DNA of 64,000 nucleotides. Source: an uncultured Oscillospiraceae bacterium. GTDB lineage: Bacteria > Bacillota > Clostridia > Oscillospirales > Oscillospiraceae. The notes beneath the pieces were generated by a model. The model was not told the DNA's origin and searched no databases. It saw only the letters and a list, made by a program, of their open reading frames with translations. The translations under genes and the position numbers were made by a program. Below, piece by piece: positions 7,603 through 47,510 of the stretch (positions within the stretch are counted from its first letter, which is position 1; each line of letters begins with the position of its first letter). The stretch is taken from the NCBI GenBank assembly GCA_947589745.1, contig CANQCS010000005.1, forward strand, positions 1-64,000. The letters run 5' to 3'.

Positions 7603-7719
7603 ATACTTTTTTTGAAAGAAAAAGTATCAAAAAGAACTTTAATATCGCTACCAAAGCGTTGCAATTCCTACATTTCTCACACGGTGACGATATATGGTTC
7701 TAATTGGAGAATAGTATCA
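7603..7719 (+). repeat. Dispersed element A, copy 1
   Basis: The hairpin is at 7603-7627 (ATACTTTTTTT / GAAAGAAAAAGTAT arms). It is followed by the conserved tail CAAAAAGAACTTTA, then CGCTACCAAAGCGTTGC, CCTACATTTCTCACACGGTG and an end GTATCA. That terminal TCA is the complement of the TGA stop of the GH13 gene. This is one of nine copies in the window. Confidence 0.8.
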
Positions 7720-9021
7720 GACACGCCAAAATGCCGTGCTGTAGGGCGGCATGGGGATGCCGTTCCCGAACTCCTGCTCTCTCCCGGTGACGAGGTCCAC
7801 GCCCCGCCCGGCCCCGATGTTGAAGCGGGCGTCGATCCCCTCGCCAGCAGCGTTGACGGCCACCAGCACCCGCTCCCCGTCCGCGGCCCGCTCAAAGACG
7901 ATCTGCCGGTTGGTCAGGAACAGGTTCCGGTACCCGCCGTACTGCAAGGCCCGGCTCCGCCGCCGGGCGGCGGCCAGGGACGCGATCCAGTCCGTGAGCT
8001 CGTTCCGCTCCGGCTTCTCCAATGCGGGGCGTAGAGGCCCGTCGCCGTTGTGCTTCCGGCCCTCGATGCCCCACTCGCTGCCGTAGTACACCGCCGGGAC
8101 CCCCGGCATCCCGAACAGCAGTCCCCAGGCCGGCACCAGGTGGGCCTTGTCCCTGAGCTTGCTGGCGATGCGCTCCACGTCGTGGTTGTCCAGGAAGCTC
8201 AGCAGCCTCCGCCCCTTGTACAGGGTCCAGGACTCCGGCCCGAACTGCCGGGCCAGGCTGTGGCCAATCTCGAACAGGTTCCCGTCGTTGAAGCTGGACC
8301 ACAGGCCCTTATAGCACTCGTAGTTGGTGACGGAGTGGCAAAGGCCGTCGCCCATCCATCGGTTGTAGTCGCCGTGGAGGGTCTCCCCCACCAGGACAAA
8401 GTCCGGCTTGAGCCCGTCCGTGAAGCTCCGGAGCTGCCGCAGATAGTCCGGGCTCAGGCAGTAGGCCACATCCAGCCGCAGGCCGTCGATGCCGAACCGC
8501 TCCACCCAGGAGCGGATGGCGTCCAGCTGGTGCCCCACCACGACGGGATTTTGCAGATTCAGCTCCACCAGCTCATAGTGGCCCTCCCAGGCCTTGTACC
8601 AGAAGCCGTCGTTGTACCCGGTGTTGCCGCCGAAGTCCACCCGGAACCAGTCCTTATAGGGGCTGTCCCACTTCTTCTCCCGCACGTCCCGGAAGGCCCA
8701 GAACCCCCGGCCCACGTGGTTGAACACCCCGTCGAACAGCACCCGCAGCCCGGCGGCGTGGAACGCGGCGCAGACCGTTTTCAAATCCTCCTCCGTGCCC
8801 AGGCGGCGGTCCACGGTGAAGTAGTCCCGGGTGTCGTAGCCGTGGCGGTCGCTCTCAAAGAGAGGGTTCAGCAGCACCGCCGTACACCCCAGGTCCCGGA
8901 TGTGGTCCACCCAGTCCAGCAGCCGCAGGATGCGGTGGGCCTGGACTCCGTCGTTCTCCTCCGGCGCGCCGCAGAGCCCCAGGGGGTAGATCTGATAAAC
9001 GACCGCCTCATCATACCACAT
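7717..9021 (-). CDS. GH13 family alpha-glucan hydrolase (alpha-amylase / cyclomaltodextrinase-like)
   Basis: A 434-aa cytoplasmic glycoside hydrolase (no signal peptide) acting on alpha-1,4-glucans or maltodextrins. GH13 conserved regions are visible in order: DGVFNHVG (region I), GLRLDVAY with the nucleophile Asp (II), LVGETLHG with the acid/base Glu (III) and FLDNHDVERI (IV). It lacks the N-terminal CBM34 domain of classical neopullulanases and begins directly with MWYDEAVVYQIYPLG. Start 9021 follows GGAGA. Its promoter (9222-9250) is about 200 bp upstream, so the transcript has a long leader containing a full copy of the dispersed element, and a second copy overlaps its stop codon. No sugar transporter is adjacent. 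Confidence 0.9.
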   Translation of the reverse strand: MWYDEAVVYQIYPLGLCGAPEENDGVQAHRILRLLDWVDHIRDLGCTAVLLNPLFESDRHGYDTRDYFTVDRRLGTEEDLKTVCAAFHAAGLRVLFDGVFNHVGRGFWAFRDVREKKWDSPYKDWFRVDFGGNTGYNDGFWYKAWEGHYELVELNLQNPVVVGHQLDAIRSWVERFGIDGLRLDVAYCLSPDYLRQLRSFTDGLKPDFVLVGETLHGDYNRWMGDGLCHSVTNYECYKGLWSSFNDGNLFEIGHSLARQFGPESWTLYKGRRLLSFLDNHDVERIASKLRDKAHLVPAWGLLFGMPGVPAVYYGSEWGIEGRKHNGDGPLRPALEKPERNELTDWIASLAAARRRSRALQYGGYRNLFLTNRQIVFERAADGERVLVAVNAAGEGIDARFNIGAGRGVDLVTGREQEFGNGIPMPPYSTAFWRV

Positions 9022-9070
9022 AGCACTTTCTCCTTCCCGCCGGACACACCGGCATTCCCATAGCGCCGTC

Positions 9071-9187
9071 ATACTTTTTCTTGAAAGAAAAAGTATCAAA
9101 AAGAACTTTACCATCGCCCTCAAAGCGTTGCATTACCTACATTTCCGCACGGTAACGCGGTACACTTCTAGGGGGAGGATCGTATCA
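9071..9187 (+). repeat. Dispersed element A, copy 2 (in the GH13 leader)
   Basis: Perfect hairpin at 9071-9096 (ATACTTTTTC / GAAAAAGTAT), then CAAAAAGAACTTTACC, AAAGCGTTGC, CCTACATTTC, GCACGGTAACGCG and an end GTATCA. It lies between the GH13 promoter and start codon, in reverse orientation to that transcript. Confidence 0.8.
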
Positions 9188-9221
9188 CTTTGGCCCGCCC
9201 CGCGGGCCCAGCGCCACAGAC

Positions 9222-9250
9222 AGTATACAGGAAAAACTTCAGCATGTCAA
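9222..9250 (-). promoter_or_regulatory. Promoter of the GH13 gene
   Basis: On the minus strand TTGACA (9250-9245), 17 bp, TATACT (9227-9222). The -35 box is perfect. Transcription would start near 9215 and cross element copy 2 before ATG 9021. Confidence 0.75.
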
Positions 9251-9259
9251 ACCGCAAAA

Positions 9260-9287
9260 GTGCCCCGGCCCAGAAGAGCCGGGGCAC
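9260..9287 (-). terminator. Intrinsic terminator of the PadR/DUF2812 operon
   Basis: Stem GTGCCCCGGC / GCCGGGGCAC with an 8-nt loop, followed on the minus strand by TTTTGCGG. It lies 8 bp after the DUF2812 stop and overlaps the -35 side of the GH13 promoter. Confidence 0.8.
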
Positions 9288-9294
9288 CGTGGGA

Positions 9295-10713
9295 CTATCC
9301 CCCCAGCTTCTCCCCCACGATCGCCATTTGCTCCGCCGTGGGGGTCCAGTCAAAGTGGATGGACACGATGCGCCTGTCGTAGCACAGCAGGAACCGGTTG
9401 GACGCCCAGTCCGCGTTCTGATAGACCAGCTCATAGGCCTCCGCCGCGCCCCAGGGGGCGGGGTCCACCGGCTGGTAGAGCGCCTTGTACCCCTCCGGGG
9501 CCCTGTCGTCGTTGGTCTCGTCCCGTTCCCGGTATATGGCGTCCCGGCACCAGCCGTAAAGGAACGGCATCTTCACCGACACGACCTCATAATCCAGGGT
9601 GGGGATGTCCTTGAAATCCTCCGCGTCGAACCGGGGGCTCTGCTCCGCCTCGTACCGGCTGAGGAACAGGGAGTCGTCGCCGCCGAAGGTGGTGATGTAG
9701 TCGTCGTAGTCCACCGCCATCATGTCTTCGATCCGCAGGGGGATCTCGTCCCGGTAGAGGTACCAGACCTGCCCCTGGTACTCGTAGCGGTCCACGTCCC
9801 CGTCCCCCTGGTCGGGCAGCAGGCCCCGGCTGGTGGTGGACACCAGGGCAAGGATGATGCCGAACATCAGGGCGTAGCTCAGCACGGAGATACCGCCGAA
9901 GGTGACCACCCGGTTCACGTTTTTGGATACCTTTTTCTTTTTGAGAAAGTTCATCACCAGGCGGGTCCCGAAGAAGATCACCAGGGACCACCCAATCATC
10001 AGCGGGAAGACGATCCTCGTCAGCCGGTCCCCCTGCCAGACGTAGCAGAACAGCCAGTAGGCAAAAGCCAGCACTGCCACCGCCAGACACACGCCCTGGA
10101 ATTTACTGTGGTTGGGGGTGGCCATGAACTCCCCCCGCTCCGCCGCCTGTATGGCCCGGCGGCGCCAACGGAAGTAGCCGCCGACGGTCACCGCGCACAG
10201 CAGAAACGCCACCACCCACATCACGCCGGTGGAGAGCCGGACGGGGCTGGACAGCAGCTGGACCGGGTGAGTGACGATCTCCCCCACGAACATCCAGAGG
10301 TTGAACAGCACAGCGGCCAGCAGGATGCCGTAGGTGGGCAGGAAGGTCCGCTTGGCGGAGCGGTGGAGGGTGTCCACCTCCATCACCGGGTCCGTCTCGA
10401 TGGGCGTGGCGTCCGGGTCCTCGTTGTAGAAAATTTGCAGCTGGGCGTTGGAGGCCGCCAGCTTCCAGCCGGTGCGCTCGCAGTAGGCGTGGAAGTCCAG
10501 CTCCCCCTCCGTGGGCCCCGGGTCGAAGACGGACGCCCGGGGGTAGTAGGTGACGCAGAATTTCAGCTTTCTGGGCTCGCACCGGCGGTAGTGCCACAGG
10601 TAGGGTATCTTCTCCAGCATCCAGCCCTCGGCGGCCATCTTCTCCAGGTGTGCCTCGATGCCCGTGTGGTCGTAAAAGGTGAACCGCTCCAGGCGGCGCT
10701 TGACGTCTTTCAT
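9295..10713 (-). CDS. DUF2812-domain membrane protein
   Basis: A 472-aa protein with an N-terminal DUF2812-type region (residues about 1-110: RRLERFTFYDHTGIEAHLEKMAAEGWMLE and WHYRRCEP). Four to five transmembrane helices follow, roughly residues 125-145, 160-180, 210-230, 240-255 and 272-295, and then a soluble C-terminal domain. It overlaps the PadR gene by 4 bp (ATGA at 10710-10713), so the two are co-translated. In Firmicutes, DUF2812 proteins are usually paired with PadR repressors and are thought to respond to membrane or cell-envelope stress; the biochemical role is unknown. The terminator at 9260-9287 ends the operon. Confidence 0.85.
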   Translation of the reverse strand: MKDVKRRLERFTFYDHTGIEAHLEKMAAEGWMLEKIPYLWHYRRCEPRKLKFCVTYYPRASVFDPGPTEGELDFHAYCERTGWKLAASNAQLQIFYNEDPDATPIETDPVMEVDTLHRSAKRTFLPTYGILLAAVLFNLWMFVGEIVTHPVQLLSSPVRLSTGVMWVVAFLLCAVTVGGYFRWRRRAIQAAERGEFMATPNHSKFQGVCLAVAVLAFAYWLFCYVWQGDRLTRIVFPLMIGWSLVIFFGTRLVMNFLKKKKVSKNVNRVVTFGGISVLSYALMFGIILALVSTTSRGLLPDQGDGDVDRYEYQGQVWYLYRDEIPLRIEDMMAVDYDDYITTFGGDDSLFLSRYEAEQSPRFDAEDFKDIPTLDYEVVSVKMPFLYGWCRDAIYRERDETNDDRAPEGYKALYQPVDPAPWGAAEAYELVYQNADWASNRFLLCYDRRIVSIHFDWTPTAEQMAIVGEKLGG

Positions 10714-11063: not shown

Positions 11064-11079
11064 GGCCTCACCTCCTATT

Positions 11080-11160
11080 CTCGAATATCGAGTTTATCGG
11101 GCAAAAGTTAAATCTCGAATATCGAGATTTGATGGTGTCATTATATTCTCGATATTCGAG
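11080..11160 (-). promoter_or_regulatory. Three PadR operator palindromes
   Basis: The 13-mer CTCGAATATCGAG occurs at 11080-11092 and 11114-11126, and its exact reverse complement CTCGATATTCGAG at 11148-11160. Centres are 34 bp apart each time. The middle copy extends to a longer palindrome (AATCTCGA...TCGAGATT). They cover the promoter and leader of the padR-DUF2812 operon and are not found elsewhere near the genes described here. Confidence 0.8.
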
Positions 11161-11246: not shown

Positions 11247-11284
11247 GCCTCTTGCAGCAGCCCCATTTTCCAGCCAGCCCGTTT

Positions 11285-11401
11285 ATACTATTCTTCAATT
11301 AAAGCCATATAACGTTACCGTGTGAAAAATGTAGGAATTGCAACGCTTTGGTAGCGATATTAAAGTTCTTTTTGATACTTTTTCTTTCAAGAAAAAGTAT
11401 C
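11285..11401 (-). repeat. Dispersed element A, copy 3 (after trpA)
   Basis: In reverse orientation the hairpin is at 11375-11400. The tail runs leftward through AAGTTCTTTTTG, GCAACGCTTTGGTAGCG, AATGTAGGAATTGC and CGTTACCGTG. The TGA stop of trpA (11402-11400) overlaps the first base of the hairpin. Confidence 0.8.
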
Positions 11402-12175
11402 AGCACTCCTTGAGAGCGTCGGTCATGGACTTCACATAGGCCCCCACGTGCTCCGGGGCGTCCTTGCCGTACTGGGCCAAAATCTTGATGATAGCGGAGC
11501 CCACGATGGCCCCGTCGGAGAGGGAGGCCATTTTTCTGGCCTGCTCCGGGGTGGAGATGCCGAAGCCCACGGCGCAGGGGATGCCGGGGTTGGCCTGCCG
11601 CACCAGGGCCACCATGGCCCCGATGTCGGTGGTGATCTCGGACCTAACTCCCGTGACGCCCAGGGAGGACACGCAGTAGACGAACCCCTCGGCAGCCCTG
11701 GCGATCTCCGAGATGCGGCCCTCGGAGGTGGGGGCGATGAGGGACACCAGCTCCAGCCCGTACTTGCGGCAGGCCGGGGCGAACTCCTCCTTCTCCTCAA
11801 AGGGCACGTCGGGGAGGATCAGGCCGTTCATCCCCGCCTCCGCCGCCCTGGACAGGAATCGGTCCATGCCGTAGGAGAACACCACGTTGGCGTAGGTCAT
11901 GAACACCATGGGCACGGTCACGTCCCGCCGCAGGTCCCTCACCAGGTCAAAGACCTGGTCGGTGGTGACGCCGCCCAGGAGGGCCCGGAGGTTGGCCCCC
12001 TGGATAACGGGCCCCTCGGCGGTGGGGTCGGAGAAGGGGATGCCCAGCTCGATGAGGCTGGCCCCGTTTTTCACGCACTCCCGCACACAGGCGGCGGTGG
12101 TCTCCAGGTCCGGGTCTCCGCAGGTGATGAAGGGGATGAACGCTTTTCCGTGAGCGAAAGCTTCCTTGATCCTGC

Positions 12176-12179
<4 letters not shown>
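11400..12179 (-). CDS. trpA: Tryptophan synthase alpha chain
   Basis: A 259-aa TIM-barrel subunit that cleaves indole-3-glycerol phosphate to indole, which is channelled to TrpB for the last step of tryptophan synthesis. The signature [15 protein letters not shown] (catalytic Asp) and an upstream GDPDLETT are present, and [12 protein letters not shown] carries the conserved loop. Start ATG 12179 is chosen because it overlaps the trpB stop in an ATGA junction. It is the last gene of the trp operon; its stop codon TGA is directly followed by a dispersed-element hairpin. Confidence 0.97.
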
Positions 12180-13360
<1,181 letters not shown>

Positions 13361-25910: not shown

Positions 25911-27599
25911 ATGAAGTTCAGCGAGATGCCCTACACCCGCCCGGACCTGGAGCAGGTCCGGACCTATTCCCGGAGCGTACTGGAGCGCATCCAGTCCGCC
26001 GCCTCCGCCCAGGAGCAGATCGACGCCCTCAAGGAGTACGACCAGTGGTCCAAGGGGCTCAACACCGACTGCTCCCTGGCCTACGCCCGCCACACCATCG
26101 ACACCCGGGACCCCTTCTACGCCGCGGAGAACGACTACGTGGACGCCATCTCCCCGGAGCTCCAGGAGCTGAGCCAGCGCATCGACCTGGCGCTGCTGCA
26201 CTCCCCCTTCCGCCCGGAGCTGGAGGAGAGCCTGGGGAAGCTGTTCTTCACCAACCTGGAGATCGGTGTGCGGTGCATGAAGCCGGAGATCATGGACCTG
26301 ATGCAGGAGGAGAACCGGCTCCAGAGCGAGTACCAGAAGCTGTACGCCTCCGCCCTGGTGGAGTGGGAGGGCAAGAGGCTGACCCTGCCCCAGCTGGGCC
26401 CCTACCAGGAGAGCACGGACCGGGCTGTCCGCAAGGCGGCCTGCGAGGCTGCCGGCCGCTGGTTCGACGCCCACCAGGCGGAGCTGGACGACCTCTTTGA
26501 CAAGCTGGTGAAGAACCGCACCGCCCAGGGCCGGGCCATGGGCTATGAGAACTACATCCCCCTGGCCTACGACCGCCTGGGCCGCAACTGCTACGGCCCG
26601 GAGGAGGTGGCCGCCTTCCGGGACCAGATCGCCGCGGACATGGTGCCCGTCGCGGTGCGCATCAAGAGGGACCAGGCCCGCCGCCTGGGCCTGGACAAGC
26701 TGGCCCTCTACGACAACGGCCTGGTGTTCCCCGACGGCAACGCCAAGCCCCAGGGCACGGCGGAGGACATCCTGGCCGCCGGCCGGGAGATGTACCGGGC
26801 CCTCAGCCCGGAGACCGCCGAGTTCGTGGACTTCCTCTACGACAACGAGCTGATGGACGTGCTCAGCAAGGAGGGCAAGGCCCCCGGCGGCTACTGCACC
26901 TACTTCCCCGCCTACAAGGCCCCCTTCATCTTCTCCAACTTCAACGGCACCAGCGGCGACGTGGACGTGCTGACCCATGAGGCGGGCCACGCCTTCGCCG
27001 GGTACCGCACCGCCCGGAAGGGCTACCTCTCCGCCCTGGAAAATCCCACCGCCGAGACCTGCGAGGTCCACTCCATGTCCATGGAGTTCCTCACTGCCCC
27101 CTGGCACGACAAGTTCTTTGGCCCTCTCACCCAGAAGTACGAGGTGGCCCACTGCGCTGACGCCCTGGCCTTCATCCCCTACGGCTGTCTGGTGGACGAG
27201 TTCCAGCACCGTGTGTACGCCGAGCCCGATCTGACCCCGGCCCAGCGCAATGCGGTGTGGATGGAGCTGGAGCACAAGTACCGGCCCTGGATCGACTTCG
27301 AGGACCTGCCCTTCTACGGCAGGGGCGCGGGCTGGCAGCGGCAGCTCCACGTCTACCTCTACCCCTTCTACTACATCGACTACTGCATGGCCCAGACCGT
27401 GGCGCTCCAGTTCTGGCAGGCATCCCTGGCCGACCGCGGGGACACCTGGCAGCGTTATCTGGCCTTCGCCGAGGCCGGCGGCACCAAGACCTTCGTGGAG
27501 CTGGTGGCCGACGCCGGGATGAAGCTGCCCTACGCCCCCGGCTGCATCCGGGAGGTGGGCGAAAAGATCTCCCGCTGGCTGGACGAGAACCCCGCCTAA
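25911..27599 (+). CDS. M3 family oligoendopeptidase (PepF-like)
   Basis: A 562-aa cytoplasmic zinc peptidase degrading short peptides. The catalytic motif HEAGH (in VDVLTHEAGHAFAGY, about residues 356-370) gives the two His ligands and Glu. The downstream ETCEVHSMSMEFL segment supplies the third ligand Glu, as in the family. YCTYFPAYKAPFIFSNFNGT precedes the motif. Length fits the M3 PepF/pz-peptidase type. Start ATG 25911 follows AAGGAGG. It is a single-gene unit. Its TAA stop is only 8 bp before a dispersed-element hairpin. It would complement the oligopeptide uptake system at 56490-64000. Confidence 0.93.
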   Translation: MKFSEMPYTRPDLEQVRTYSRSVLERIQSAASAQEQIDALKEYDQWSKGLNTDCSLAYARHTIDTRDPFYAAENDYVDAISPELQELSQRIDLALLHSPFRPELEESLGKLFFTNLEIGVRCMKPEIMDLMQEENRLQSEYQKLYASALVEWEGKRLTLPQLGPYQESTDRAVRKAACEAAGRWFDAHQAELDDLFDKLVKNRTAQGRAMGYENYIPLAYDRLGRNCYGPEEVAAFRDQIAADMVPVAVRIKRDQARRLGLDKLALYDNGLVFPDGNAKPQGTAEDILAAGREMYRALSPETAEFVDFLYDNELMDVLSKEGKAPGGYCTYFPAYKAPFIFSNFNGTSGDVDVLTHEAGHAFAGYRTARKGYLSALENPTAETCEVHSMSMEFLTAPWHDKFFGPLTQKYEVAHCADALAFIPYGCLVDEFQHRVYAEPDLTPAQRNAVWMELEHKYRPWIDFEDLPFYGRGAGWQRQLHVYLYPFYYIDYCMAQTVALQFWQASLADRGDTWQRYLAFAEAGGTKTFVELVADAGMKLPYAPGCIREVGEKISRWLDENPA

Positions 27600-27607
27600 C
27601 GGCGCTC

Positions 27608-27722
27608 ATCCTTTTTCTTGAAAGAAAAAGGATCAAAAAGAACTTTAACCTCGCTCTCAGGGCGCTGCGATCCCCGCCTGCTCCGCACGGTGACGGTGGC
27701 ATCTTCTTGAATGGGAGGACAA
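27608..27722 (+). repeat. Dispersed element A, copy 5 (after the M3 peptidase)
   Basis: Hairpin at 27608-27633 with the C-G version of the covarying pair (ATCCTTTTTC / GAAAAAGGAT). The tail follows: CAAAAAGAACTTTAACC, CGCTCTCAGGGCGCTGC, GCACGGTGACGG and a terminal GGGAGGACAAG. Confidence 0.8.
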
Positions 27723-27728
27723 GAATCC

Positions 27729-30549: not shown

Positions 30550-30579
30550 ATTTCCCGGGCCGCCGGAAGGCGGCCTGGA

Positions 30580-30621
30580 ATAAAAGTTCTTTTTGATTCT
30601 TTTTCTTTCAAGAAAAAGAAT
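30580..30621 (-). repeat. Dispersed element A, copy 6 (short, in the cob leader)
   Basis: Only the hairpin (30596-30621, ATTCTTTTTC / GAAAAAGAAT) and the adjacent AAAAGTTCTTTTTG part are kept; the rest of the tail is missing. It lies between the cob promoter and cobD, in reverse orientation to the transcript. Confidence 0.75.
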
Positions 30622-30646
30622 GTATGCCTTCTGAGGAGAAACCCAC

Positions 30647-31626: not shown

Positions 31627-32712
31627 ATGAGAAACAACGACCGTCCGCCGGAGCTGGTCCACGGCGGCGACTGGGCCGGATACGCGGAGGAATACGGGGC
31701 GCTGCCCCTGGACTTCTCCTCCAACGTCAGCCCCCTGGGCCTGCCGGAGGGCGTGTGCCGGGCCGCAGCGCTGGCCCTGGAGCAGGCGGACCGCTACCCC
31801 GACCCCCTGTGCCGGGACCTGCGGAAAGCCATCGCCGCCGCGGAACACGTGGACCCGGCGTGGTGCCTCTGCGGCGGCGGCGCGGCGGACCTGATCTACC
31901 GGGCGGTGCTGGCCCGGCGGCCCAGGCGGGCGCTGGTCACCGCCCCCACCTTCGCGGAGTACGAGTCGGCGCTGGACCTGGTCCGCTGCCGGACTGTCCT
32001 TTTCCCGCTACGGGAGGACGCCGGTTTTCTGCTGGAGGACCGCTTTCTGGACGCCATCACGCCGGACACAGATATGGTGTTCCTATGCGAGCCCAACAAC
32101 CCCACGGGCCGCACCACCCGGCGGGAGCTGCTCCTGGCAGTGCTGGACCGCTGCCGGGAGGCGGGGGCCCTGCTGGTGGTAGACGAGTGCTTCGGCGATT
32201 TCCTGGACGACCCCGCCGCCCACACCCTGAAGAGCCTGCTGGGCGCGTATCCGAATCTCTTGATCGTCAAGGCGTTCACCAAGCTGTACGCCATGGCCGG
32301 ACTGCGCCTTGGCTACTGCCTGTGCGCCGACGGCGGGCTGCTGGACGCTATGGGCCGCTGTGCCCAGCCCTGGGCGGTGTCGGGACCGGCCCAGGCGGCG
32401 GGCATCGCCGCCCTGGGGGAGGCGGACTACGTCCGGGAGGTCCGACAACTCATCCGAACGGAGCGGCCCTGGCTGGCTGCGGAGCTGACCCGGCTGGGGT
32501 TCCGGGTGATCCCCGGCGAGGCCAATTTCCTGCTCTTCTTCTCCCCCGTCCCCCTGGGGGAGCCTTTGCGAAAGCGGGGCATTCTGCTGCGGAGCTGTGA
32601 GAACTACCATGGACTGGGCGCGGGCTGGTACCGGACCGCCGTGCGCACCCACGAGGACAACCGGCGGCTCATCGCCGCCCTGGAGGATATACGGAGGGAC
32701 AAGACCACATGA
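31627..32712 (+). CDS. PLP aminotransferase, likely threonine-phosphate decarboxylase
   Basis: A 361-aa fold-type I PLP enzyme. It resembles histidinol-phosphate aminotransferase: LDFSSNVSPLGLPEGV at the N-terminus, the substrate-binding FLCEPNNPTGRTTRREL, VVDECFGDF, and VKAFTKLYAMAGLRLGY with the PLP Lys. In Salmonella the homologue CobD decarboxylates L-threonine-O-3-phosphate to aminopropanol phosphate, the cobalamin linker. Its place between cobD/cbiB and cobQ, 8 bp after the former and overlapping the latter by 4 bp, supports that role over histidine biosynthesis. No other his gene is in the window. Confidence 0.88.
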   Translation: MRNNDRPPELVHGGDWAGYAEEYGALPLDFSSNVSPLGLPEGVCRAAALALEQADRYPDPLCRDLRKAIAAAEHVDPAWCLCGGGAADLIYRAVLARRPRRALVTAPTFAEYESALDLVRCRTVLFPLREDAGFLLEDRFLDAITPDTDMVFLCEPNNPTGRTTRRELLLAVLDRCREAGALLVVDECFGDFLDDPAAHTLKSLLGAYPNLLIVKAFTKLYAMAGLRLGYCLCADGGLLDAMGRCAQPWAVSGPAQAAGIAALGEADYVREVRQLIRTERPWLAAELTRLGFRVIPGEANFLLFFSPVPLGEPLRKRGILLRSCENYHGLGAGWYRTAVRTHEDNRRLIAALEDIRRDKTT

Positions 32713-34196
32713 GCAGAGCCAAATGTATCATGGTCCAGGGGACCATGTCCGGGGCCGGAAAGAGCCTTCTCTGCGCCGCGCTGTGCCGCATCTTTGCCCA
32801 GGACGGCCTGCGCTGCGCGCCGTTCAAGAGCCAGAACATGGCCCTCAACAGCTACATCACCCGGGACGGCTGGGAGATCGGCCGGGCCCAGGCGGTCCAG
32901 GCCCAGGCCGCCGGGGTGGAGCCGGACGTGCGGATGAACCCCATCCTGCTGAAACCCAGCAGCGACGTGGGCAGCCAGGTGATCGTCAACGGTGAGGTCC
33001 GCCGCCACATGCCCGCCTCGGAGTATTTCCGCTACAAGAAGCGGCTCATCTCGGAGATCATGGCCGCCTACGACAGCCTCGCCGGCGAGTTCGACGTCAT
33101 CGTCATCGAGGGCGCGGGCAGCCCGGCGGAGATCAACCTGAAGGAAAACGACATCGTGAACATGGGCCTGGCCAAGCTGGTGGACGCGCCGGTGCTGCTG
33201 GCGGGGGACATCGACCGGGGTGGCGTGTTCGCCCAGCTCTACGGCACCGTGGCCCTGCTGGACCCTGACGAACAGGACCGCATTGCGGGCCTCCTCATCA
33301 ACAAGTTCCGGGGCGACCTGGAAATTTTGCGCCCGGGCCTCGCCATGCTGGAGGAGAAGACCGGCAAGCCGGTGCTGGGGGTGATCCCCTATCTGCGGGT
33401 GGACGTGGACGACGAGGACTCCCTGGCCCCCTGCCTGGAGCAGACCAGCGTCCACAAGCCCCTGGACGCGGCGGTGATCCGCCTGCCCCGCATCTCCAAC
33501 TTCACCGACTTCAACCCCTTGGAGGAACACCCCCAGATCGGTGTACGCTATGTGGACGACGTGCGGCGGCTGGGCACTCCCGACCTGGTGGTCCTGCCGG
33601 GCACCAAGAGCACGGTCAGCGACCTGCTCTGGCTGCGGCAGAGCGGCCTGGAGACAGCGGTGCTGAAGCTGGCTGCCGCCGGGACCCCGGTGCTGGGCGT
33701 CTGCGGCGGCTACCAGATGCTAGGCGCCGCTCTCCACGACCCGGAGGGCGTGGAGACCGAAGCCGGGACCCACATCCGCGGCATGGGCCTTCTCCCGGTG
33801 GAGACCACCTTCACCTCCCAAAAATCCCGCCTGCGGAAGACCGCGGTGGTCCAGGCATCCCCCTTCGCCGGTGCCAGGCTGGAGGGATACGAGATCCACA
33901 TGGGCCGGACCGAGGAGACCGGCTCCCCCTTCTGCCTCCTGGAGGACGGCCGCGCCGAGGGCTGCGCCCGGGGGAACGTCTGGGGCACCTATCTCCACGG
34001 CCTGTTCGACAGCGGTGAGCTGACCCAGGCCATGGCCCGCCTGCTCTGCGCCCGGAAGGGCCTCCGGCCCGAGGAGGCGGAGGCGGTATCCCACGCCGCC
34101 TACCAGCAGCGGCAGTTCGACCTGCTGGCCGATGGCGTCCGCAGCGCGCTGGACATGCCCGCCATCTACCGCATACTGGACCATTCTTTTTCTTGA
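32709..34196 (+). CDS. cobQ: Cobyric acid synthase
   Basis: A 495-aa glutamine-dependent amidotransferase that amidates four carboxylates of adenosylcobyrinic diamide. The N-terminal synthetase domain shows MVQGTMSGAGKSLL (P-loop), FKSQNMALNSY and DIDRGGVFAQLYGT. The C-terminal amidotransferase domain has the Cys nucleophile in VLGVCGGYQMLG and a His in GTYLHGLFD. The reading frame ends inside the dispersed-element hairpin: its last residues (HSFS) and TGA stop (34194-34196) are encoded by the repeat. The start overlaps the previous gene (ATGA). Confidence 0.95.
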   Translation: MSRAKCIMVQGTMSGAGKSLLCAALCRIFAQDGLRCAPFKSQNMALNSYITRDGWEIGRAQAVQAQAAGVEPDVRMNPILLKPSSDVGSQVIVNGEVRRHMPASEYFRYKKRLISEIMAAYDSLAGEFDVIVIEGAGSPAEINLKENDIVNMGLAKLVDAPVLLAGDIDRGGVFAQLYGTVALLDPDEQDRIAGLLINKFRGDLEILRPGLAMLEEKTGKPVLGVIPYLRVDVDDEDSLAPCLEQTSVHKPLDAAVIRLPRISNFTDFNPLEEHPQIGVRYVDDVRRLGTPDLVVLPGTKSTVSDLLWLRQSGLETAVLKLAAAGTPVLGVCGGYQMLGAALHDPEGVETEAGTHIRGMGLLPVETTFTSQKSRLRKTAVVQASPFAGARLEGYEIHMGRTEETGSPFCLLEDGRAEGCARGNVWGTYLHGLFDSGELTQAMARLLCARKGLRPEEAEAVSHAAYQQRQFDLLADGVRSALDMPAIYRILDHSFS

Positions 34197-34288
34197 AAGA
34201 AAAAGAATCAAAAAGAACTTTACCCTCGCTCTCAAAGCGCTGCGGCCCCCGGGTCTTCCGCCCGGTGACGATACGCTCTTCTCAGGGA
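34183..34288 (+). repeat. Dispersed element A, copy 7 (overlapping the cobQ 3' end)
   Basis: Hairpin at 34183-34208 (ATTCTTTTTC / GAAAAAGAAT). The tail follows: CAAAAAGAACTTTACC, CGCTCTCAAAGCGCTGC, GCCCGGTGACGATACG and GGGAGAGAACC. The cobQ stop codon lies in the hairpin loop. Confidence 0.8.
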
Positions 34289-34312
34289 GAGAACCGCTTC
34301 ACAGCAGAAACG

Positions 34313-35291: not shown

Positions 35292-35344
35292 GAGAAAATA
35301 TTTTTTTATCTGAAAAAGAGGATCGTTCCCCGGAGAGGGACTTA

Positions 35345-35460
35345 TCCGTCCCTCCCACGAGAAGCCTCTTTCGTTACCGTGCGGGAAACGCCGGTATCGC
35401 AGCGTCTTGAGAGCGACAGTAAAGTTCTTTTTGATTCTTTTTCTTTCAGGAAAAAGAATC
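35345..35460 (-). repeat. Dispersed element A, copy 8 (after mreB)
   Basis: In reverse orientation the hairpin is at 35434-35459 (ATTCTTTTTC / GAAAAAGAAT, loop TTTCAGG variant). The tail runs through AAGTTCTTTTTG, GCAGCGTCTTGAGAGCG and CGTTACCGTGCG. The mreB stop codon (35461-35459) overlaps the hairpin edge. A small GAGGGAC/GTCCCTC hairpin at about 35335-35355 ends the tail. Confidence 0.8.
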
Positions 35461-36487
35461 AGTTGACCTGACGGCGGCGGGAGAGGTTGATGGTGCCCTC
35501 CTGGAGCTCGCCGATCATATCCAGGCTCTGGCCCGTGCCCTGGGCCACGCAGGCGATGGCGTTCTCCGCCACCATGGTGGCGATGCCGGTACGGGAGGTG
35601 ATGAGCTTGTCGAAGCCGTACACCAGGCTGCCGCCGCCGGTCATGACGATGCCGTTGGTGGACACGTCCGCGATCAGCTCCGGGGGCGTCCGCTCCAGCA
35701 CCGCGTGGATGCTCTCCAGGATGCGCTCGGTGGGCTCCTCAAAGGCCTCCATCATCTCCACGGAGGACACGGTGATGGTCTTGGGCAGGCCGGTCAGCAG
35801 GCAGCGGCCCTTCACGTCCATGAAAGCCTCCTCCTCCCGGGGATAGACGCAGCCAATGGCCATCTTCATCCGCTCCGCCGTGCTCTCGCCCACCAGGATG
35901 TTGTGCTTGCGGCGCATATACTTGACCACGGACTCGTTGAACTGGTCCCCGGCCACCTTGATGGAGGCGGACTCCACCACGCCGCCCAGGGAGATGACCG
36001 CGATATCGGCGGTACCGCCGCCGATATCCACCACCATGTGGCCGTCGGGCTTCTGGATATCGATGCCCGCGCCGATGGCGGCGGCCACGGGCTCCTCGAT
36101 GAGGTACACCCGGCGGCAGCCGGCCTGGATGCCCGCGTCCACCACGGCGCGCTCCTCTACCTCGGTGATGCCGGAGGGCACGCAGATGATGACCCGGGGT
36201 TTGAAGATCATAAACCCGGCCACCTTGCGGATGAACTCCTTCAGCATCCGCTCGGTCATGTCATAGTCGGAGATGACGCCCTCCCGCAGGGGACGGATGG
36301 CGACGATATTCCCCGGGGTACGGCCCAGCATCTGGCGGGCCTCCTCGCCCACCTTCAGCAGCTTGCCGGTGTTCTTGTCCATAGCGACCACGGAGGGCTC
36401 ATTGAGGACGATGCCCTTCCCTTTTACATATACCAAAACGGATGCGGTACCCAGGTCGATACCGATGTCTTTCGCAAATGCGCACAT
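35459..36487 (-). CDS. Rod shape-determining actin homologue MreB/Mbl
   Basis: A 342-aa actin-like ATPase that forms membrane-associated filaments guiding lateral wall synthesis. Actin-fold motifs are IGIDLGTASVLVYVKGKGI (phosphate 1), VDIGGGTADIAVISLGG (phosphate 2), IEEPVAAAIGAGIDI (connect) and IVMTGGGSLVYGFDKL (adenosine). The N-terminal MCAFAKD is short. MreC and MreD are not adjacent; the gene stands alone with its own promoter, which suggests an mbl/mreBH-type paralogue more than the mreBCD-operon copy. The TGA stop overlaps a dispersed-element hairpin. Confidence 0.94.
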   Translation of the reverse strand: MCAFAKDIGIDLGTASVLVYVKGKGIVLNEPSVVAMDKNTGKLLKVGEEARQMLGRTPGNIVAIRPLREGVISDYDMTERMLKEFIRKVAGFMIFKPRVIICVPSGITEVEERAVVDAGIQAGCRRVYLIEEPVAAAIGAGIDIQKPDGHMVVDIGGGTADIAVISLGGVVESASIKVAGDQFNESVVKYMRRKHNILVGESTAERMKMAIGCVYPREEEAFMDVKGRCLLTGLPKTITVSSVEMMEAFEEPTERILESIHAVLERTPPELIADVSTNGIVMTGGGSLVYGFDKLITSRTGIATMVAENAIACVAQGTGQSLDMIGELQEGTINLSRRRQVN

Positions 36488-37905: not shown

Positions 37906-38070
37906 TGGGTTACTTTTCCCTTGCCGGAAAAGTAACCAAAAGGGCCCTCAAGGGGCTGGCGCCCCCTGAGAACCCCTCATTTCTTTTTTTATTTTGCGCT
38001 CACCCTTTGGTTGGTTGGGTCTAAACTGTTCTTGCTCCCGTGTATGAGGCGAAGCGGCTACTTTAGTATG
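37906..38070 (+). repeat. Intergenic repeat family B, copy 3 (partial), with hairpin
   Basis: The hairpin GGTTACTTTTCC...GGAAAAGTAACC (about 37912-37940) is flanked by CCCTGG. It is followed by the stem CTCAAGGGGCTGGCGCCCCCTGAG. From about 37977 the sequence matches copy 1 in direct orientation: TTTGGTTGG, GTCTAAACTGTTCTTG, GTGTATGAGGCG. It diverges after about 38070. The rest of the gene-free stretch 37819-38219 shows no gene. Confidence 0.6.
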
Positions 38071-41123: not shown

Positions 41124-41131
41124 CTCCCAAA

Positions 41132-41949: not shown

Positions 41950-44900
41950 AATTACAGGACATTGTCAAGGTCTACGCCACCGCAGGCGAGACCGTCACCG
42001 CTCTCCGTGGCATTAATTTGGCATTCCGCGAGAGCGAATTTGTGGCCATCCTCGGCCACTCCGGCTGCGGCAAGACCACGCTGCTGAACATCATCGGCGG
42101 CCTGGACCAGTACACCAGCGGCGACCTCATCATCAACGGTCGCTCCACCAAGGAGTTCCGGGACAGCGACTGGGACACCTACCGGAACCACTCCATCGGC
42201 TTCGTGTTCCAGAGCTACAACCTGATCCCCCACCAGTCGGTGCTCTCCAACGTGGAGCTGGCCCTGACCCTCTCCGGCGTGGGCAAGTCGGAGCGCCGCC
42301 GCCGGGCCAGAGAGGCCCTGGTGAAGGTGGGGCTGGGGGACCAGATGAAGAAGCGGCCCAACCAGCTCTCCGGCGGCCAGATGCAGCGGGTGGCCATCGC
42401 CCGGGCCCTGGTGAACGACCCGGACATTCTCCTGGCCGACGAGCCTACCGGCGCTCTGGACAGCGAGACCAGCGTCCAGGTCATGGACTTGCTGGCGGAG
42501 ATCGCCAAGGATAAGCTGGTCATCATGGTGACCCACAACCCGGAGCTGGCGGAGAAATACGCCACCAGGACCATCCGCCTGCTGGACGGCCAGGTCACCG
42601 CCGACAGCGCCCCCTTCGACGGGGTCCAGGAGAGGCCCGCCGCCCTGGACGTGCGGCAGAAGAAGCCCTCCATGTCCTTCGCCACCGCCTTCTCCCTGTC
42701 CCTCAACAACCTGATGACCAAGAAGGGCCGCACCATCCTCACCAGCTTTGCCGGGTCCATCGGCATCATCGGCATCGCGCTGATCCTGTCCCTCTCCGCC
42801 GGTATCAACTCCTACATCGAGGAGGTCCAGGAGGAGACGCTGTCCTCCTACCCCATCACCATCCAGGCGGAGACGGTGGATATGTCCTCCATGATGCTGT
42901 CCTTCATGGGGGCCCGGCAGGAGCGGGAGGAGAACGAGGTCCGTGAGGAGGACCGGGTCTATTCCGCCACCGTCATGTACGACATGCTCAACGCCATGGT
43001 CAACGCCGAGACCTCCAAGAACAATTTGAAGGCCTTCAAGTCGTATCTGGACGCGGGGGGCGGCGGGATCGCGGACCTGGCCAACATCCGCTACGGCTAC
43101 AACCTCCGCTTTGATATCTACACCAACGACGAGGACGGCAACGTGGTCAAGAGCGATATCATGACCATGATGCAGGAGGCCATGTCCTCCCTGTACGGCG
43201 GGGACTACTCCTCCTACTTCGGGTCCTCCATGGGCTCCATGTACACCGCCATGGACGTGTGGGAGGAGCTGATGCCCGGTGAGGACGGGCAGCTCATCTC
43301 CGACAGCGTGAAGGACCAGTATGAGCTGCTCTACGGCGCGTGGCCCCAGAACTACGACGAGGTGATCCTCTTTGTGGACGGCCGCAACGAGGTGTCCGAC
43401 CTGATGCTCTACGCCCTGGGCTACATCTCCTCCGACGCCATGACCGACACCCTGAAGGCCATCCAGAACGGGGAGACCGTGGACGTGGAGACCCGTAGCT
43501 GGAGCTACGAGGAGCTGTGCGAGAACAAGTTCAAGCTGATCCTCCCCGCCGAATACTTCCAGCACGACCCGGTCACCGGCGGCTACGTGGACATGACCGA
43601 GACCGACAGCGGCATGGACTACCTCTACAACAGCGACGACGTGGGTGTGCCCCTGAAGATCGTGGGCATTGCCCGGCCCGGCGAGGATGCGAGCGGCAAC
43701 GTCCGGGGCGCCATCGGCTACACCAGCGCCCTCACCACCTACGCCATCCAGGCCACGGCGGAGATGGATATTGTCAAGGAGCAGATGGACGACGAGACCA
43801 CCGACGTCTTCCTGGCCCTGCCCTTCGCCACCGGCGACGAGGAGGAGCCCACCGATGAAGAGAAGGTGGAGGCCATCACCGAGTATCTGCAGGACCTCAC
43901 CGCCCAGGAGAAGGCGGACGCCTATCTGGATGTGATGAGCCAGCCGTCCCAGGAGTATGTGGACGGCGTGGTGGAGCGCCAGATGGAGGGCATGACCCGG
44001 GAGTCCATCGAGGACATGATCATCCAGCAGTACGCCACCGAGATGGGCGTGGATGAGAGCACCATCATGGGCTATATTCGGGACATGGACGACGATACCC
44101 TGTTCTCCCAGGTGGAGGAGGCCATCGCCTCCGGCGTCCGGGAGCAGTACGGACAGATGGTCAGCGCCCAGATGGGCGCCCTCACCGCGGACCAGCTGGC
44201 CGGGATGCTGGACGCCGCCCTGGAGGCCGGGCCCGTGGAGCCCTCTGAGAATGAGCCGGAGGAGGCAGAGACGCCCGATCCCTCCGCCGCGGGCATGGCT
44301 GGCATGACTGGCGCAGATATGTCCGGCATGGCCGGAATGACCGGCGCGGATATGAGCGGTATGGCCGGGATGACCGGCACGGATATGGCCGGGATGACTG
44401 GGGCCGGCATGGGCGGTATGACCGGGATGCCCGGGATGGGCATGGCCGCGGCCCAGCCCAGCGGCCTGGAGGACTGGCAGTTCGTGTACCTCTACGACAA
44501 CTACATGCCCCCCACCCTCTCCGACGCCACCTATGACGAGAACATGGACCGGCTGGGGTATGTGGACCTGGAGAGCCCCGACACCGTCAGCATCTACGCC
44601 GCCACCTTCGCGGACAAGGACGCCATCGCGGACCTCATCACCGAGTACAATGAGAACGTGGAGAACGAGGACGACGAGATTGAGTACACCGACTATGTGG
44701 CCCTGCTGATGAGCTCCGTCACTGATATCATCAGCGGCATCAGCTACCTGCTGATCGCGTTCGTGTCCATCTCCCTGATTGTCTCCTCCATTATGATCGG
44801 CATTATCACCTATATCTCCGTGCTGGAGCGGACCAAGGAGATCGGTATTCTCCGGGCCGTGGGCGCGTCCAAGCGGGATATCAGCCGAGTGTTCAATGCG

Positions 44901-45143
44901 GAGACCTTCATCGTGGGCCTGGGGGCCGGTGTCATCGGCATCGCGGTGACGCTGATCCTGATCGTCCCCATCAACGCCATTCTGTTCCACTTCACCGGCA
45001 TTGAGGGCCTCAAGGCCGCCCTGCCGGTCCAGGGGGCGGTGATCCTGGTGGTCATCAGCGCGCTGCTGACCATCATCGCGGGCCTGATCCCCTCCCGGGT
45101 GGCCGCCAAGAAGGACCCCGTGGTGGCGCTGCGCACCGAGTAA
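41943..45143 (+). CDS. Fused MacB-like ABC exporter with Met/Gly-rich insert
   Basis: A 1066-aa protein with the ATPase and FtsX-like permease in one chain. The NBD (residues 1-235) has GHSGCGKT (38-45), LSGGQMQR and [13 protein letters not shown] transmembrane helix follows near residue 275 ([21 protein letters not shown]). A very large extracytoplasmic domain (about 300-920) precedes the last three helices and ends in FtsX style ([20 protein letters not shown]). At about residues 783-836 a low-complexity run built from [13 protein letters not shown] units carries 15 Met in about 55 residues (44292-44450). MacB-type proteins push envelope substrates outward by mechanotransmission. Linked to and overlapping a TetR gene. 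Confidence 0.9.
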
Positions 45144-45169
45144 CCGCACATTCGGCGGGACAGAAAAAG

Positions 45170-45211
45170 CAAAAAGCTTCGGATATCACAGGTTGATATC
45201 CGAAGCTTTTT
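45170..45211 (+). terminator. Intrinsic terminator after the ABC exporter
   Basis: AAGCTTCGGATATCA / TGATATCCGAAGCTT stem with loop CAGGT region, followed by TTTTTT. It is A-rich on the 5' side, so it can also stop the converging S66 gene. Confidence 0.88.
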
Positions 45212-45231
45212 TATGCAGAATTTTGTGGAGG

Positions 45232-46149
45232 CTATCTGCGGCAGACGAGCGTCCCCACGTCTGCGTCCACGGTGCAGACCGTGCCCAGGGGCAGGGTCAC
45301 CATGGGGTCGCAGTAGTGGGCGGAGCGCACGTTCATCAGTACCGGCTTGGGATAGCCCCGAAAGAACCATTCCACCAGCGCCTCCGGCCCCCACTCCGGC
45401 CTGCGCTCGTTGGGGCAGTCCGCGAAGGTCCCCAGCACCACCCCGGCGGCCTGGTCAAAAATCCCGGCATAGGCCAGCTGGGCCAGCATCCGCTCCAGGG
45501 CGTAGACCTCCTCCCCCACGTCCTCCAGGAAGAGAATTTTGCCCCGGGCGTCGATCTGCCAGGGGGTGCCCACTCCGGCGGCGATCAGGCTCAGGTTCCC
45601 GCCGGTGAGGATTCCCCGGGCTCTCCCAGGCCGCAGGCAGATCACAGACTCCCCCGGCGGGTTCTGGATAGGGAGGCAGTCCCCCATCTCCAGCGCCGCA
45701 CGGAGGCTCCGCCAGGTGAAGTCCCCGGTGCCCTGGAGAAGGGTGGATGCCATGGGACCGTGGAAGGTGACGAAGCCGCAGCGCTGGCCGATGGCGGTGT
45801 GGAGGGTGGTCACGTCGCTGAAGCCGATGAAGGGCTTGGGGTGGGCGGCGATCAGATCCCAGTCCAAGTGGCCCAGAAGCCGCCAGGCGGTCTCGCCGCC
45901 ACGGGTACACCAGACCGCCTTGATCTCCGGGTCCCCGAAGGCCCGGTGGATGTCCCGGACCCGGGCCTCCGTGGGGGCGGCGTAGCCGTCCGGATCCGCC
46001 CCATGGGTGGATTTGCCGGGCCACACCCGGTAGCCCGCCCGCTCCAGGGCGGCGGCAATGGCCTCCACCGGCCGTTCCTCCGTCAGGGATGAGGACGGCG
46101 AAATCAGGGCGATAGTGTCCCCCGGCCGGGGGCAGGGCGGGAAGATCAT
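45232..46149 (-). CDS. LD-carboxypeptidase, peptidase S66 family
   Basis: A 305-aa serine peptidase that cleaves an L-D bond, classically the terminal D-Ala of the murein tetrapeptide. PRPGDTIALISPSS is at the N-terminus. The nucleophile Ser lies in FIGFSDVTTLH, GGNLSLIAAGVGTPWQ is the conserved Gly-Asn-Leu segment, and ILFLEDVGE with the downstream SAHYCDPMVTLPLG carries the Glu and His region. No signal peptide, so it acts on recycled muropeptides or cytosolic peptides. I start it at ATG 46149 (MIFPPCPRPGD) after GGAG; the upstream GTG/ATG choices at 46158-46164 overlap the previous gene. Confidence 0.92.
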   Translation of the reverse strand: MIFPPCPRPGDTIALISPSSSLTEERPVEAIAAALERAGYRVWPGKSTHGADPDGYAAPTEARVRDIHRAFGDPEIKAVWCTRGGETAWRLLGHLDWDLIAAHPKPFIGFSDVTTLHTAIGQRCGFVTFHGPMASTLLQGTGDFTWRSLRAALEMGDCLPIQNPPGESVICLRPGRARGILTGGNLSLIAAGVGTPWQIDARGKILFLEDVGEEVYALERMLAQLAYAGIFDQAAGVVLGTFADCPNERRPEWGPEALVEWFFRGYPKPVLMNVRSAHYCDPMVTLPLGTVCTVDADVGTLVCRR

Positions 46150-46150
46150 A

Positions 46151-47335
46151 TCAGGCATCTCCATTCAGATAGTCCAGCACCGTCTGGACGTGGAGGGCCG
46201 CCGCCAGGGGCAGGGCCTCCGGGTCCACGGCGAAGTGGGGGTTGTGGTTGGGGCAGGTGAAGCCCTTGCTCTCATTCCCCACGCCCACGTAGTAGTAGCA
46301 CCCCGGCGCGGCGTCGGAGAAGTAGCCGAAGTCGTCGGTGCCCAGGCTGGGCTCCGCCAGCTCCAGAACGTGCTCCGGGCCCAGTACCTTGGCCGCCGCC
46401 CGGCGGACCAGGTCCGTCATGGCCGGGTCGTTGCGGCAGCCGGGGTAGCTCTCGAAGATGGTGACCTCCGCCTCCACCCCCATCCCGGCGGCGATGCCGG
46501 TGACGATGGCACGGAAGTCGTCCTTCACCCGCTGCCGGGCCGGGCCGCCCATGGTGCGGAGGATGCCGGTGAACACCGCCTCCTCCGGCAGGACGTTCCC
46601 GGCGGTGCCGGCGTGGAAGCTGCCCACCGTCACCACCACCGGCTCGGTGGGGGAGGTGCGGCGGGAGGAGATGGTCTGGAGGGCGGTGATGATCTGGGCC
46701 CCGGCCACGATCACGTCGGCGCCCAGGTGGGGTTTGGCCCCGTGGGTGCCCCGGCCCTTGATGGTGACAGAGAAGGGGTTGGACGCCGCGCAGATGGGGC
46801 CGGAGCGGACGGAGACGGTGCCCGTGGGGATGCCGCTCTCCACGTGGCAGCAGAGCATGGCGTCCACGTGGGGATTTTCCATGCACCCGGCGGCGATCAT
46901 CCGGGCCGCGCCGCCGTCGCCCTCCTCGTCGGGCTGGAAGAAGAGCTTCACATTGCCCCGCAGCTCCTCCCGGCGCGCCATCAGCAGCTCTGCCGCGCCC
47001 AGGAGGGCGGCGGTGTGGAAGTCGTGGCCGCAGGCGTGCATGACGCCGGGGACCTGGGAGGCGTAGGGCAGGCCCGTGTCCTCCAGGATGGGCAGGGCGT
47101 CGATATCCGCCCGGAAGCCGATGGTCTTTCCCGGCCGGCCGCCCCGGATCACGGCCACGGTGCCGGTGTCCAGCACCGGCGTGTACTCGACGCCCAGCCG
47201 GTCCAGGCGCTGCCGGATAAGGGCGGCGGTGTGGTGCTCCCGGTTGCCCAGCTCCGGGGTGCGGTGGATGGTCTGAAAAACGGTCTCCAGGTCCCCGGCA
47301 ATGGCCCGGGCGCCGCAAAGAATCTGTTCCGTCAT
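46151..47335 (-). CDS. M20 family amidohydrolase (hippurate / N-acyl-amino-acid hydrolase type)
   Basis: A 394-aa dinuclear zinc hydrolase. Metal-site motifs are VMHACGHDFHTAALLG, FQPDEEGDGGA with the catalytic Glu, and a late FTCPNHNPHF with the final His; the dimerisation domain lies between (residues about 180-290). Family members remove N-acyl or N-aminoacyl groups from amino acids or small peptides. Start ATG 47335 follows AAGGAG; the longer frame to 47407 is not supported. Its stop is 1 bp before the S66 start, so the two form an operon. A dispersed-element copy separates it from the upstream AstE/AspA-like gene. Confidence 0.92.
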   Translation of the reverse strand: MTEQILCGARAIAGDLETVFQTIHRTPELGNREHHTAALIRQRLDRLGVEYTPVLDTGTVAVIRGGRPGKTIGFRADIDALPILEDTGLPYASQVPGVMHACGHDFHTAALLGAAELLMARREELRGNVKLFFQPDEEGDGGAARMIAAGCMENPHVDAMLCCHVESGIPTGTVSVRSGPICAASNPFSVTIKGRGTHGAKPHLGADVIVAGAQIITALQTISSRRTSPTEPVVVTVGSFHAGTAGNVLPEEAVFTGILRTMGGPARQRVKDDFRAIVTGIAAGMGVEAEVTIFESYPGCRNDPAMTDLVRRAAAKVLGPEHVLELAEPSLGTDDFGYFSDAAPGCYYYVGVGNESKGFTCPNHNPHFAVDPEALPLAAALHVQTVLDYLNGDA

Positions 47336-47394
47336 CGTGAACGGCTCCTTTTTGCATTGAGTTAGTGGTAAACATATACAGGAAAGATCGGTCA

Positions 47395-47510
47395 CACTAT
47401 TTTCCAATCAGAACAAGGTATCGTTACCGTGCGAGAAATGTAGAGATTGCAACGCTTTGGTAGCGGTATTAAAGTTCTTTTTGATACTTTTTCTTTCAAG
47501 AAAAAGTATC
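47395..47510 (-). repeat. Dispersed element A, copy 9 (after the AstE/AspA-like gene)
   Basis: In reverse orientation the hairpin is at 47484-47509 (ATACTTTTTC / GAAAAAGTAT). The tail follows: AAGTTCTTTTTG, GCAACGCTTTGGTAGCG, AATGTAGAGATTGC and CGTTACCGTGCG. The TGA stop of the gene at 47509-48441 overlaps the hairpin edge. Confidence 0.8.

What the first reader, a model, noticed from the sequence alone, without database searches (positions are those of the whole stretch)
7603..47510. Nine-copy dispersed intergenic element with a covarying hairpin
The same element occurs at 7603, 9071, 11285, 18898, 27608, 30580, 34183, 35345 and 47395 (start coordinates, both orientations). Each begins with a 25-26 nt hairpin, then CAAAAAGAACTTTA, a small CGCT...AGCG stem with GCGTTGC or GCGCTGC, and a CACGGTGACG / CACGGTAACG block, about 118 bp in full copies. 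The third hairpin pair is A-T in four copies (ATACTTTTTC/GAAAAAGTAT), T-A in four (ATTC.../...GAAT) and C-G in one (ATCC.../...GGAT). Such compensatory change is direct evidence that base pairing has been kept by selection or copying. All copies are between genes. I know no named family that matches; whether it is new cannot be settled here.
Basis: seen in the sequence. Interest (0 to 1): 0.85.

Follow-up and report, generated by a model that had tools for sequence, protein, structure and literature searches.

The report
Jumping repeat landing on stop codons
The nine hairpin repeats belong to a family of more than 200 short sequences in this bacterial genome, most sampled complete copies of which are flanked by copied three-base target sites; they are likely miniature jumping elements, and about four in ten of the complete copies examined sit exactly on the stop codon of a gene, in one preferred direction, leaving that codon in place.

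Summary
It behaves as a MITE-type transposable element, not as a conserved RNA. Complete copies are about 113 bp, with short inverted ends (TACTTTTTC... / ...GAATAGTA) and a 3-bp TNA target duplication: 86 of 116 TNA/TNA copies agree, permuted mean 34.7. The full element is found in 23 of 24 other genomes of the genus and in 0 of 35 outside it. The hairpin is real; essentially one of its base pairs varies with compensation.

The surprise is its placing. In 59 of 143 copies the hairpin end sits exactly on the stop codon of a gene reading towards it, and only 5 lie 0-39 nt past a stop; the other end gives 10 and 9 of 142. Copies from other genomes repeat this, 24 of 54 against 3 of 54. At mreB, 21 of 21 readable relatives have the stop codon without the element. 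Copies with near-identical sisters show the bias as strongly as the rest, which favours targeting at insertion over later selection. No transposase was found, so the mover and the way stop codons are found remain unknown.

The parts
7601..7719 (+). complete copy; left triplet TCA 7601-7603, right triplet TCA 7717-7719, the latter being the stop codon of the opposing alpha-amylase gene (7717-9123 -)
9069..9187 (+). complete copy; target triplets TCA/TCA
11283..11402 (-). complete copy; left triplet TGA 11402-11400 = stop codon of trpA (11400-12221 -), right triplet TAA
18896..19010 (+). copy with T-A hairpin pair; left triplet TCA; right end not recognised, so the end coordinate is approximate
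27606..27725 (+). copy with C-G hairpin pair; left triplet TCA, 6 nt past the stop of a peptidase M3 gene (25911-27599 +); right end not recognised, end approximate
30578..30627 (-). hairpin module only (hairpin + CAAAAAGAACTTT) with GGCATACATTC flank, the form common in other genera
34181..34300 (+). copy with T-A hairpin pair; the upstream CobQ-like ORF (32709-34196 +) stops at TGA inside the hairpin; right end not recognised, end approximate
35342..35461 (-). complete copy; left triplet TGA 35461-35459 = stop codon of mreB (35459-36487 -), right triplet TAA; 21 of 21 readable relatives lack it
47392..47511 (-). complete copy; target triplets TGA/TGA, the left one (47511-47509) being the stop codon of the ORF 47509-48441 -

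Best explanation
The repeat is a 113-bp element with short inverted ends and 3-bp TNA target duplications, likely a non-autonomous DNA transposon (MITE type) moved by a transposase that was not found, and it is predicted to insert preferentially into TGA/TAA stop codons with its hairpin end towards the gene. Shown: copy number, boundaries, target duplications, genus-limited spread of the full element, the element-free mreB site in relatives, and the one-sided pile-up on stop codons. Inferred: duplicating a stop codon leaves the gene whole, so such insertions cost little; the left hairpin belongs to the end that the transposase or the target-finding step uses, which would explain why it stays paired while one pair is free to change letters; and the preference acts at insertion, because copies with near-identical sisters and intact duplications show it as strongly as the others. 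Speculative: how stop codons are found. TNA plus local flanks does not predict it, so coupling to transcription or translation of the target gene is the candidate left over.
For: 233 left-end matches, 0 in the reversed control. Target triplets: 86 of 116 agree, permuted mean 34.7, largest 55 of 20,000; neighbouring positions show no excess (55 copies). Other genomes: 26 of 39, permuted mean 12.0, largest 22. Full element in own + 23 of 24 other genomes of the genus, 0 of 35 outside. Near-identical copies at different sites: 78 of 148 have a sister of 94% or more. Depleted between divergent genes: 3 of 82 against 87 of 435 intergenic regions. Stop codons: 59 of 143 exact and 5 at 0-39 nt on the hairpin side, 10 and 9 of 142 on the other, with 429 stops and 470 such TNA sites on offer in 506 element-free genes; 62 against 14 by open frame alone, p = 2.3e-8; 24 against 3 of 54 in other genomes; a flank matrix predicts 3.5%. 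mreB: 21 of 21 readable relatives element-free.
Against: No transposase with these ends was found. 62 of 148 complete copies have non-identical triplets, the mreB one included (TGA/TAA), and 49 of 197 left ends have no recognised right end. The inverted ends are short. The sample is not random: 80 of the own-genome stretches were chosen around model matches. Gene calls are home-made. TAA far exceeds TTA (13 to 1) even in copies not on a long frame's stop, which a symmetric TNA target does not explain. No new insertion was observed.
Confidence: 0.72

Rival explanations
1. The element inserts at any TNA site, and selection keeps the copies whose hairpin directly follows a stop codon because the hairpin is useful there, for example as an mRNA 3'-end protector or a termination aid.
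For: The hairpin is stable (whole-copy folding z-scores -3.1 to -5.1 for two copies on both strands) and its pairing is restored repeatedly. The excess is one-sided, with the hairpin next to the stop.
Against: Copies with a sister of 98% or more identity are already on stops in 13 of 30 cases, and 38 of 78 at 94% or more against 25 of 70 below. Terminator-like sites still follow 19 of 63 on-stop copies and a ribosome-binding site with a start codon 17 of 63, no fewer than in control genes (87 and 102 of 517); 3 of 148 elements look like terminators themselves. A benefit limited to zero distance is hard to picture.
Confidence: 0.18
2. The stop-codon pile-up only reflects tolerance: a stop codon is the one TNA site at a gene end that can be duplicated without harm in a compact genome.
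For: Depletion between divergent genes shows that harmful sites are purged; 17 of 63 on-stop copies lie before a close start codon, where few other sites exist.
Against: The right end, facing genes equally often, shows no such excess (10 exact, 9 at 0-39 nt), and sites 0-39 nt past stops are as common as stops (470 against 429) yet hold only 5 left ends.
Confidence: 0.08
3. It is a REP/BIME-like palindromic repeat moved by a Y1 (RAYT or IS200/IS605-type) enzyme.
For: Hairpin with a conserved tail at one end, extragenic, high copy; hairpin modules of other genera occur in inverted pairs (16 pairs listed in all data, two of them under 250 bp apart).
Against: PF01797 has no match in the own genome and matches in 5 of 25 genomes of the genus. 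That class makes no target duplication (recalled), whereas one is present. No strand bias with GC skew: 30 along, 27 against, 32 weak.
Confidence: 0.04

Closest known systems
Bacterial MITEs of about 110 bp, such as MITEAba12 (PMC6382973, passages) and RUP (PMC3049150 and PMC2229807, passages)
   Same: Length (MITEAba12 111-114 bp, RUP 107 bp), no room for a gene, inverted ends, target duplications, high copy, mostly between genes
   Different: Here the duplication is 3-bp TNA (9 bp in MITEAba12), one end is a self-contained hairpin, copies pile up on stop codons in one orientation, and no partner IS is known
BOX repeats of pneumococcus (PMC3049150, passages)
   Same: Small mobile repeat with modules; tail modules repeat here too; 36 genes have their stop codon supplied by BOX
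   Different: BOX supplies the stop codon, whereas here most on-stop copies duplicate the gene's own stop; sequences were not compared
REP/BIME palindromes with RAYT (PMC3733652, search listing only)
   Same: Extragenic hairpin with a conserved neighbour sequence
   Different: No Y1 gene in the genome, a 3-bp target duplication, a defined 113-bp body
IS5-type and related transposons with 3-bp duplications (PMC4482050, passages; the TNA rule of the IS1031 group is recalled)
   Same: 3-bp target duplication; C|TNA|G is reported there for the eukaryotic NuwaII group
   Different: That paper gives ANT for bacterial IS5; PF13586 and PF13359 have no match in the own genome, and no hit elsewhere had these ends

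Membership tests
MITE (non-autonomous DNA transposon) | short, without a transposase gene | tested here: met
   about 113 bp between target triplets
MITE (non-autonomous DNA transposon) | target site duplication of fixed length | tested here: met
   3-bp TNA, 86 of 116 TNA/TNA copies against 34.7 by permutation; 26 of 39 in other genomes
MITE (non-autonomous DNA transposon) | terminal inverted repeats | tested here: met
   TACTTTTTC against TACTATTCTCC in typical copies: short and imperfect
MITE (non-autonomous DNA transposon) | autonomous partner with the same ends | tested here: inconclusive
   six Pfam transposase families searched and the loci returned were scanned, none with these ends; about three quarters of the own genome was not read
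MITE (non-autonomous DNA transposon) | site without the element in relatives | tested here: met
   mreB, 21 of 21 readable relatives; one locus only
REP/BIME with RAYT | Y1 transposase in the genome | tested here: not met
   PF01797: 0 matches in G000
REP/BIME with RAYT | no target duplication (recalled) | tested here: not met
   duplication present
Structured RNA family (Rfam) | match above a gathering score | tested here: not met
   one hit in the window, a T-box at 3332-3580, no element; around two copies only chance-level hits
Intrinsic terminator | G+C-rich stem followed by a T run | tested here: not met
   3 of 148 copies along and 1 of 148 in reverse, by a simple script rule
BOX | boxA/boxB/boxC sequence | not tested
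   no BOX sequence was fetched

The most novel reading that the evidence does not exclude
A miniature transposon whose insertion is directed to the stop codons of genes, in one orientation and by the act of gene expression itself (translation termination or transcription of the gene's end), so that it duplicates the stop codon and spreads through a genome, operon junctions included, without breaking a gene.
Probability: 0.3. Interest if true: 0.9.

Novelty: new variant of a known kind. Interest (0 to 1): 0.62.

Why it matters
Transposons limit harm by choosing safe sites, and the examples I know rely on a single site (Tn7), tRNA gene ends or other repeats (recalled). A preference for stop codons in general, in one orientation and with no motif beyond TNA, has no mechanism that I know of and would tie target choice to the reading of the gene. 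It can be tested in culturable relatives and would explain a large class of unannotated repeats in these genomes.

Tried and rejected
Whole-element RNA structure: RNAalifold on 59 copies keeps only the left hairpin, so the CGCT...AGCG stem is not a conserved structure across subfamilies. Terminator role: not supported as the main one. Replication-strand targeting: no bias seen. Local flank preference as the cause of the stop bias: a matrix from 37 non-stop sites predicts a 1.24-fold orientation ratio (bootstrap 0.58 to 3.36) and 3.5% of insertions at stops. Partner: PF01609 (7 matches in the own genome; ISAs1-like by eye, recalled), PF13586 (0) and PF00665 (1, IS21-like by eye, recalled) in the own genome; PF01797, PF13612 and PF13359 in 25 genomes; none of the loci returned has these ends, and two of the 14 PF13612 rows gave no locus. 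A scan for a left end and a same-triplet right end with an ORF between gave 10 intervals; by eye none of their ORFs is a transposase, one (L078) holds the start of what looks like a serine recombinase. In 1.72 Mb of held sequence (overlaps counted), 11 of 201 tail matches lack a left half, two of them held twice; by eye they are extra or truncated tails. Class II inverted pairs flanking a gene: three intervals read, ordinary or unassigned ORFs by eye. A second element-free site: the ORF 47509-48441 has no close ortholog in the genus. Literature: seven searches listed no paper that I recognised as describing this element or a bacterial MITE that targets stop codons; subscription journals are mostly not held. 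Seen as passages only: PMC3049150, PMC6382973, PMC2229807, PMC10969869, PMC4482050; as a search listing only: PMC3733652.

Full report
Observation. One of them (30580) is only the hairpin module. The pattern CTTTTTCTTGAAAGAAAAAGNATCAAAAAGAACTTT finds 117 + 116 places in the window's own genome (4.05 Mb, 252 contigs) at up to 3 mismatches and 0 for the reversed control.

Boundaries. I read 830,817 nt of the genome including the window and 80 further stretches chosen from the matches of a covariance model, so the later sample leans towards complete copies. Of 197 sampled left ends, 184 have the CACGG block and 148 a recognised right end. The complete element runs TACTTTTTC...GAATAGTA, about 113 bp, with a triplet on each side. 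Of 148 copies 86 have identical triplets; among the 116 with TNA on both sides 86 agree, against a permuted mean of 34.7 (sd 4.8, largest 55 of 20,000). Neighbouring positions show no excess of matches (55 copies), so the duplication is three bases long. Copies from other genomes agree: 26 of 39, permuted mean 12.0, largest 22 (an earlier, smaller set gave 11 of 27 identical triplets, mean 4.0, largest 12). The 49 own copies and, the 90 of 148 left ends without a recognised right end are not in these counts.

Spread. A covariance model of 59 complete copies matches the own genome and 23 of 24 other genomes of the genus, and none of 35 further genomes (12 other genera of the family, 23 other families of the order) (stricter filters, at most 60 candidates scored per genome). 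Many of these have another body and a flank such as GGCATACAT. Plasmids and phages gave no match; one viral contig holds the module.

Placing. With home-made gene calls (588 genes), the 82 copies that overlap no gene and have genes on both sides lie in tandem (51), convergent (28) and divergent (3) intergenic regions, against 263, 85 and 87 of 435 regions. The left triplet is the stop codon of a frame of at least 110 codons in 62 of 143 copies, the right one in 14 of 142 (two-sided p = 2.3e-8). With a codon-usage filter the counts are 59 of 143 and 10 of 142, while 0-39 nt past a stop there are 5 and 9; 506 genes without the element offer 429 TGA/TAA stops and 470 such TNA sites. The right end thus follows what is on offer, and the left end is about 13 times denser on stops than on the TNA sites just past them. 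A flank matrix trained on 37 non-stop insertions predicts 3.5% (bootstrap 2.2 to 5.1%) of insertions at stops in this direction. Other genomes repeat the split, 24 of 54 against 3 of 54. At mreB the own copy sits on the stop codon (triplets TGA left, TAA right); of 24 other loci returned, 21 show the gene end, all without the element and with the stop after the same residue, and 3 do not reach it.

Targeting or selection. On-stop copies are 35 of 86 with identical triplets and 28 of 62 without; 38 of 78 with a sister of at least 94% identity and 25 of 70 below that; 13 of 30 at 98% or more. A preference present in the youngest copies points to insertion, though very strong early selection is not excluded. 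Terminator-like sites follow 19 of 63 on-stop copies within 80 nt, and a ribosome-binding site with a start codon follows 17 of 63 within 48 nt; among 517 control genes the counts are 87 and 102. The element therefore neither replaces terminators nor avoids operon-like junctions. One asymmetry is unexplained: TAA outnumbers TTA 13 to 1 among the 41 identical-triplet copies that are not on the stop of a long frame; some of these may be stops of short genes.

Hairpin. Only the left hairpin is conserved as structure, and essentially its third pair alone varies with compensation. Its states in 197 copies are A-T 141, T-A 26, C-G 10, G-C 2, other 18. Of 18 changed copies with a right end, 12 have an A-T copy as nearest body, and a tree of 140 bodies needs at least 16 changes (short sequences, no shuffle control). 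Pairing is restored repeatedly. As the element is mobile DNA, this may reflect the transposition end or templated palindrome correction as much as RNA.

Mover. None found. Families searched: PF01609, PF13586, PF00665 in the own genome; PF01797, PF13612, PF13359 in 25 genomes. The loci returned were scanned for the ends. About three quarters of the own genome was not read, so a partner there is not excluded.

Judgement. By function a MITE-type element, with each defining feature that was tested met except the partner, which stays open; new as a family and unusual in its oriented stop-codon placing. The closest printed parallel that I saw is BOX, which supplies the stop codon of 36 genes (PMC3049150, passages), a different relation.

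Noticed in passing
window 5375-5404, 5876-5905, 37908-37937: A second palindrome family, GGTTACTTTT...AAAAGTAACC followed by AAAAG, with 86 strand-wise hits (43 sites) in 0.83 Mb of the genome and at least two subtypes. It shares the CTTTTT...AAAAAG plan of the hairpin studied here.
   Followed up: partly
window 2754-2879 and 5721-5846, also 2936-3116 and 5462-5643: Inverted arms, 85-91% complementary, around a T-box (3332-3580 -) and a carbonic anhydrase gene (3671-4330 -), next to a large serine recombinase gene (1586-2701 +, PF07508 and DUF4368).
   Followed up: no
G000 contig C40 (L067) 11421-11750: Three head-to-tail copies of the element at a 111-nt period.
   Followed up: no
L031, L052, L069, L159, L162: Copies with an extra tail module behind the right end, or a tail without a hairpin, recalling the modular plan of BOX.
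   Followed up: partly
L114 4300-4459, L122 2655-2867: In other genera the hairpin module occurs in short inverted pairs with a second stem of the type GCGAAACTNCGTTTCGC.
   Followed up: partly
window 34183-34196: The CobQ-like ORF 32709-34196 ends at a TGA inside the hairpin, so the element seems to supply its stop codon; four copies in 0.83 Mb have this spacing.
   Followed up: no
L078 5308-5820: A copy lies beside what looks by eye like the N-terminal part of a serine recombinase gene.
   Followed up: no
L150: One viral contig of 15,792 bases carries the hairpin module.
   Followed up: no
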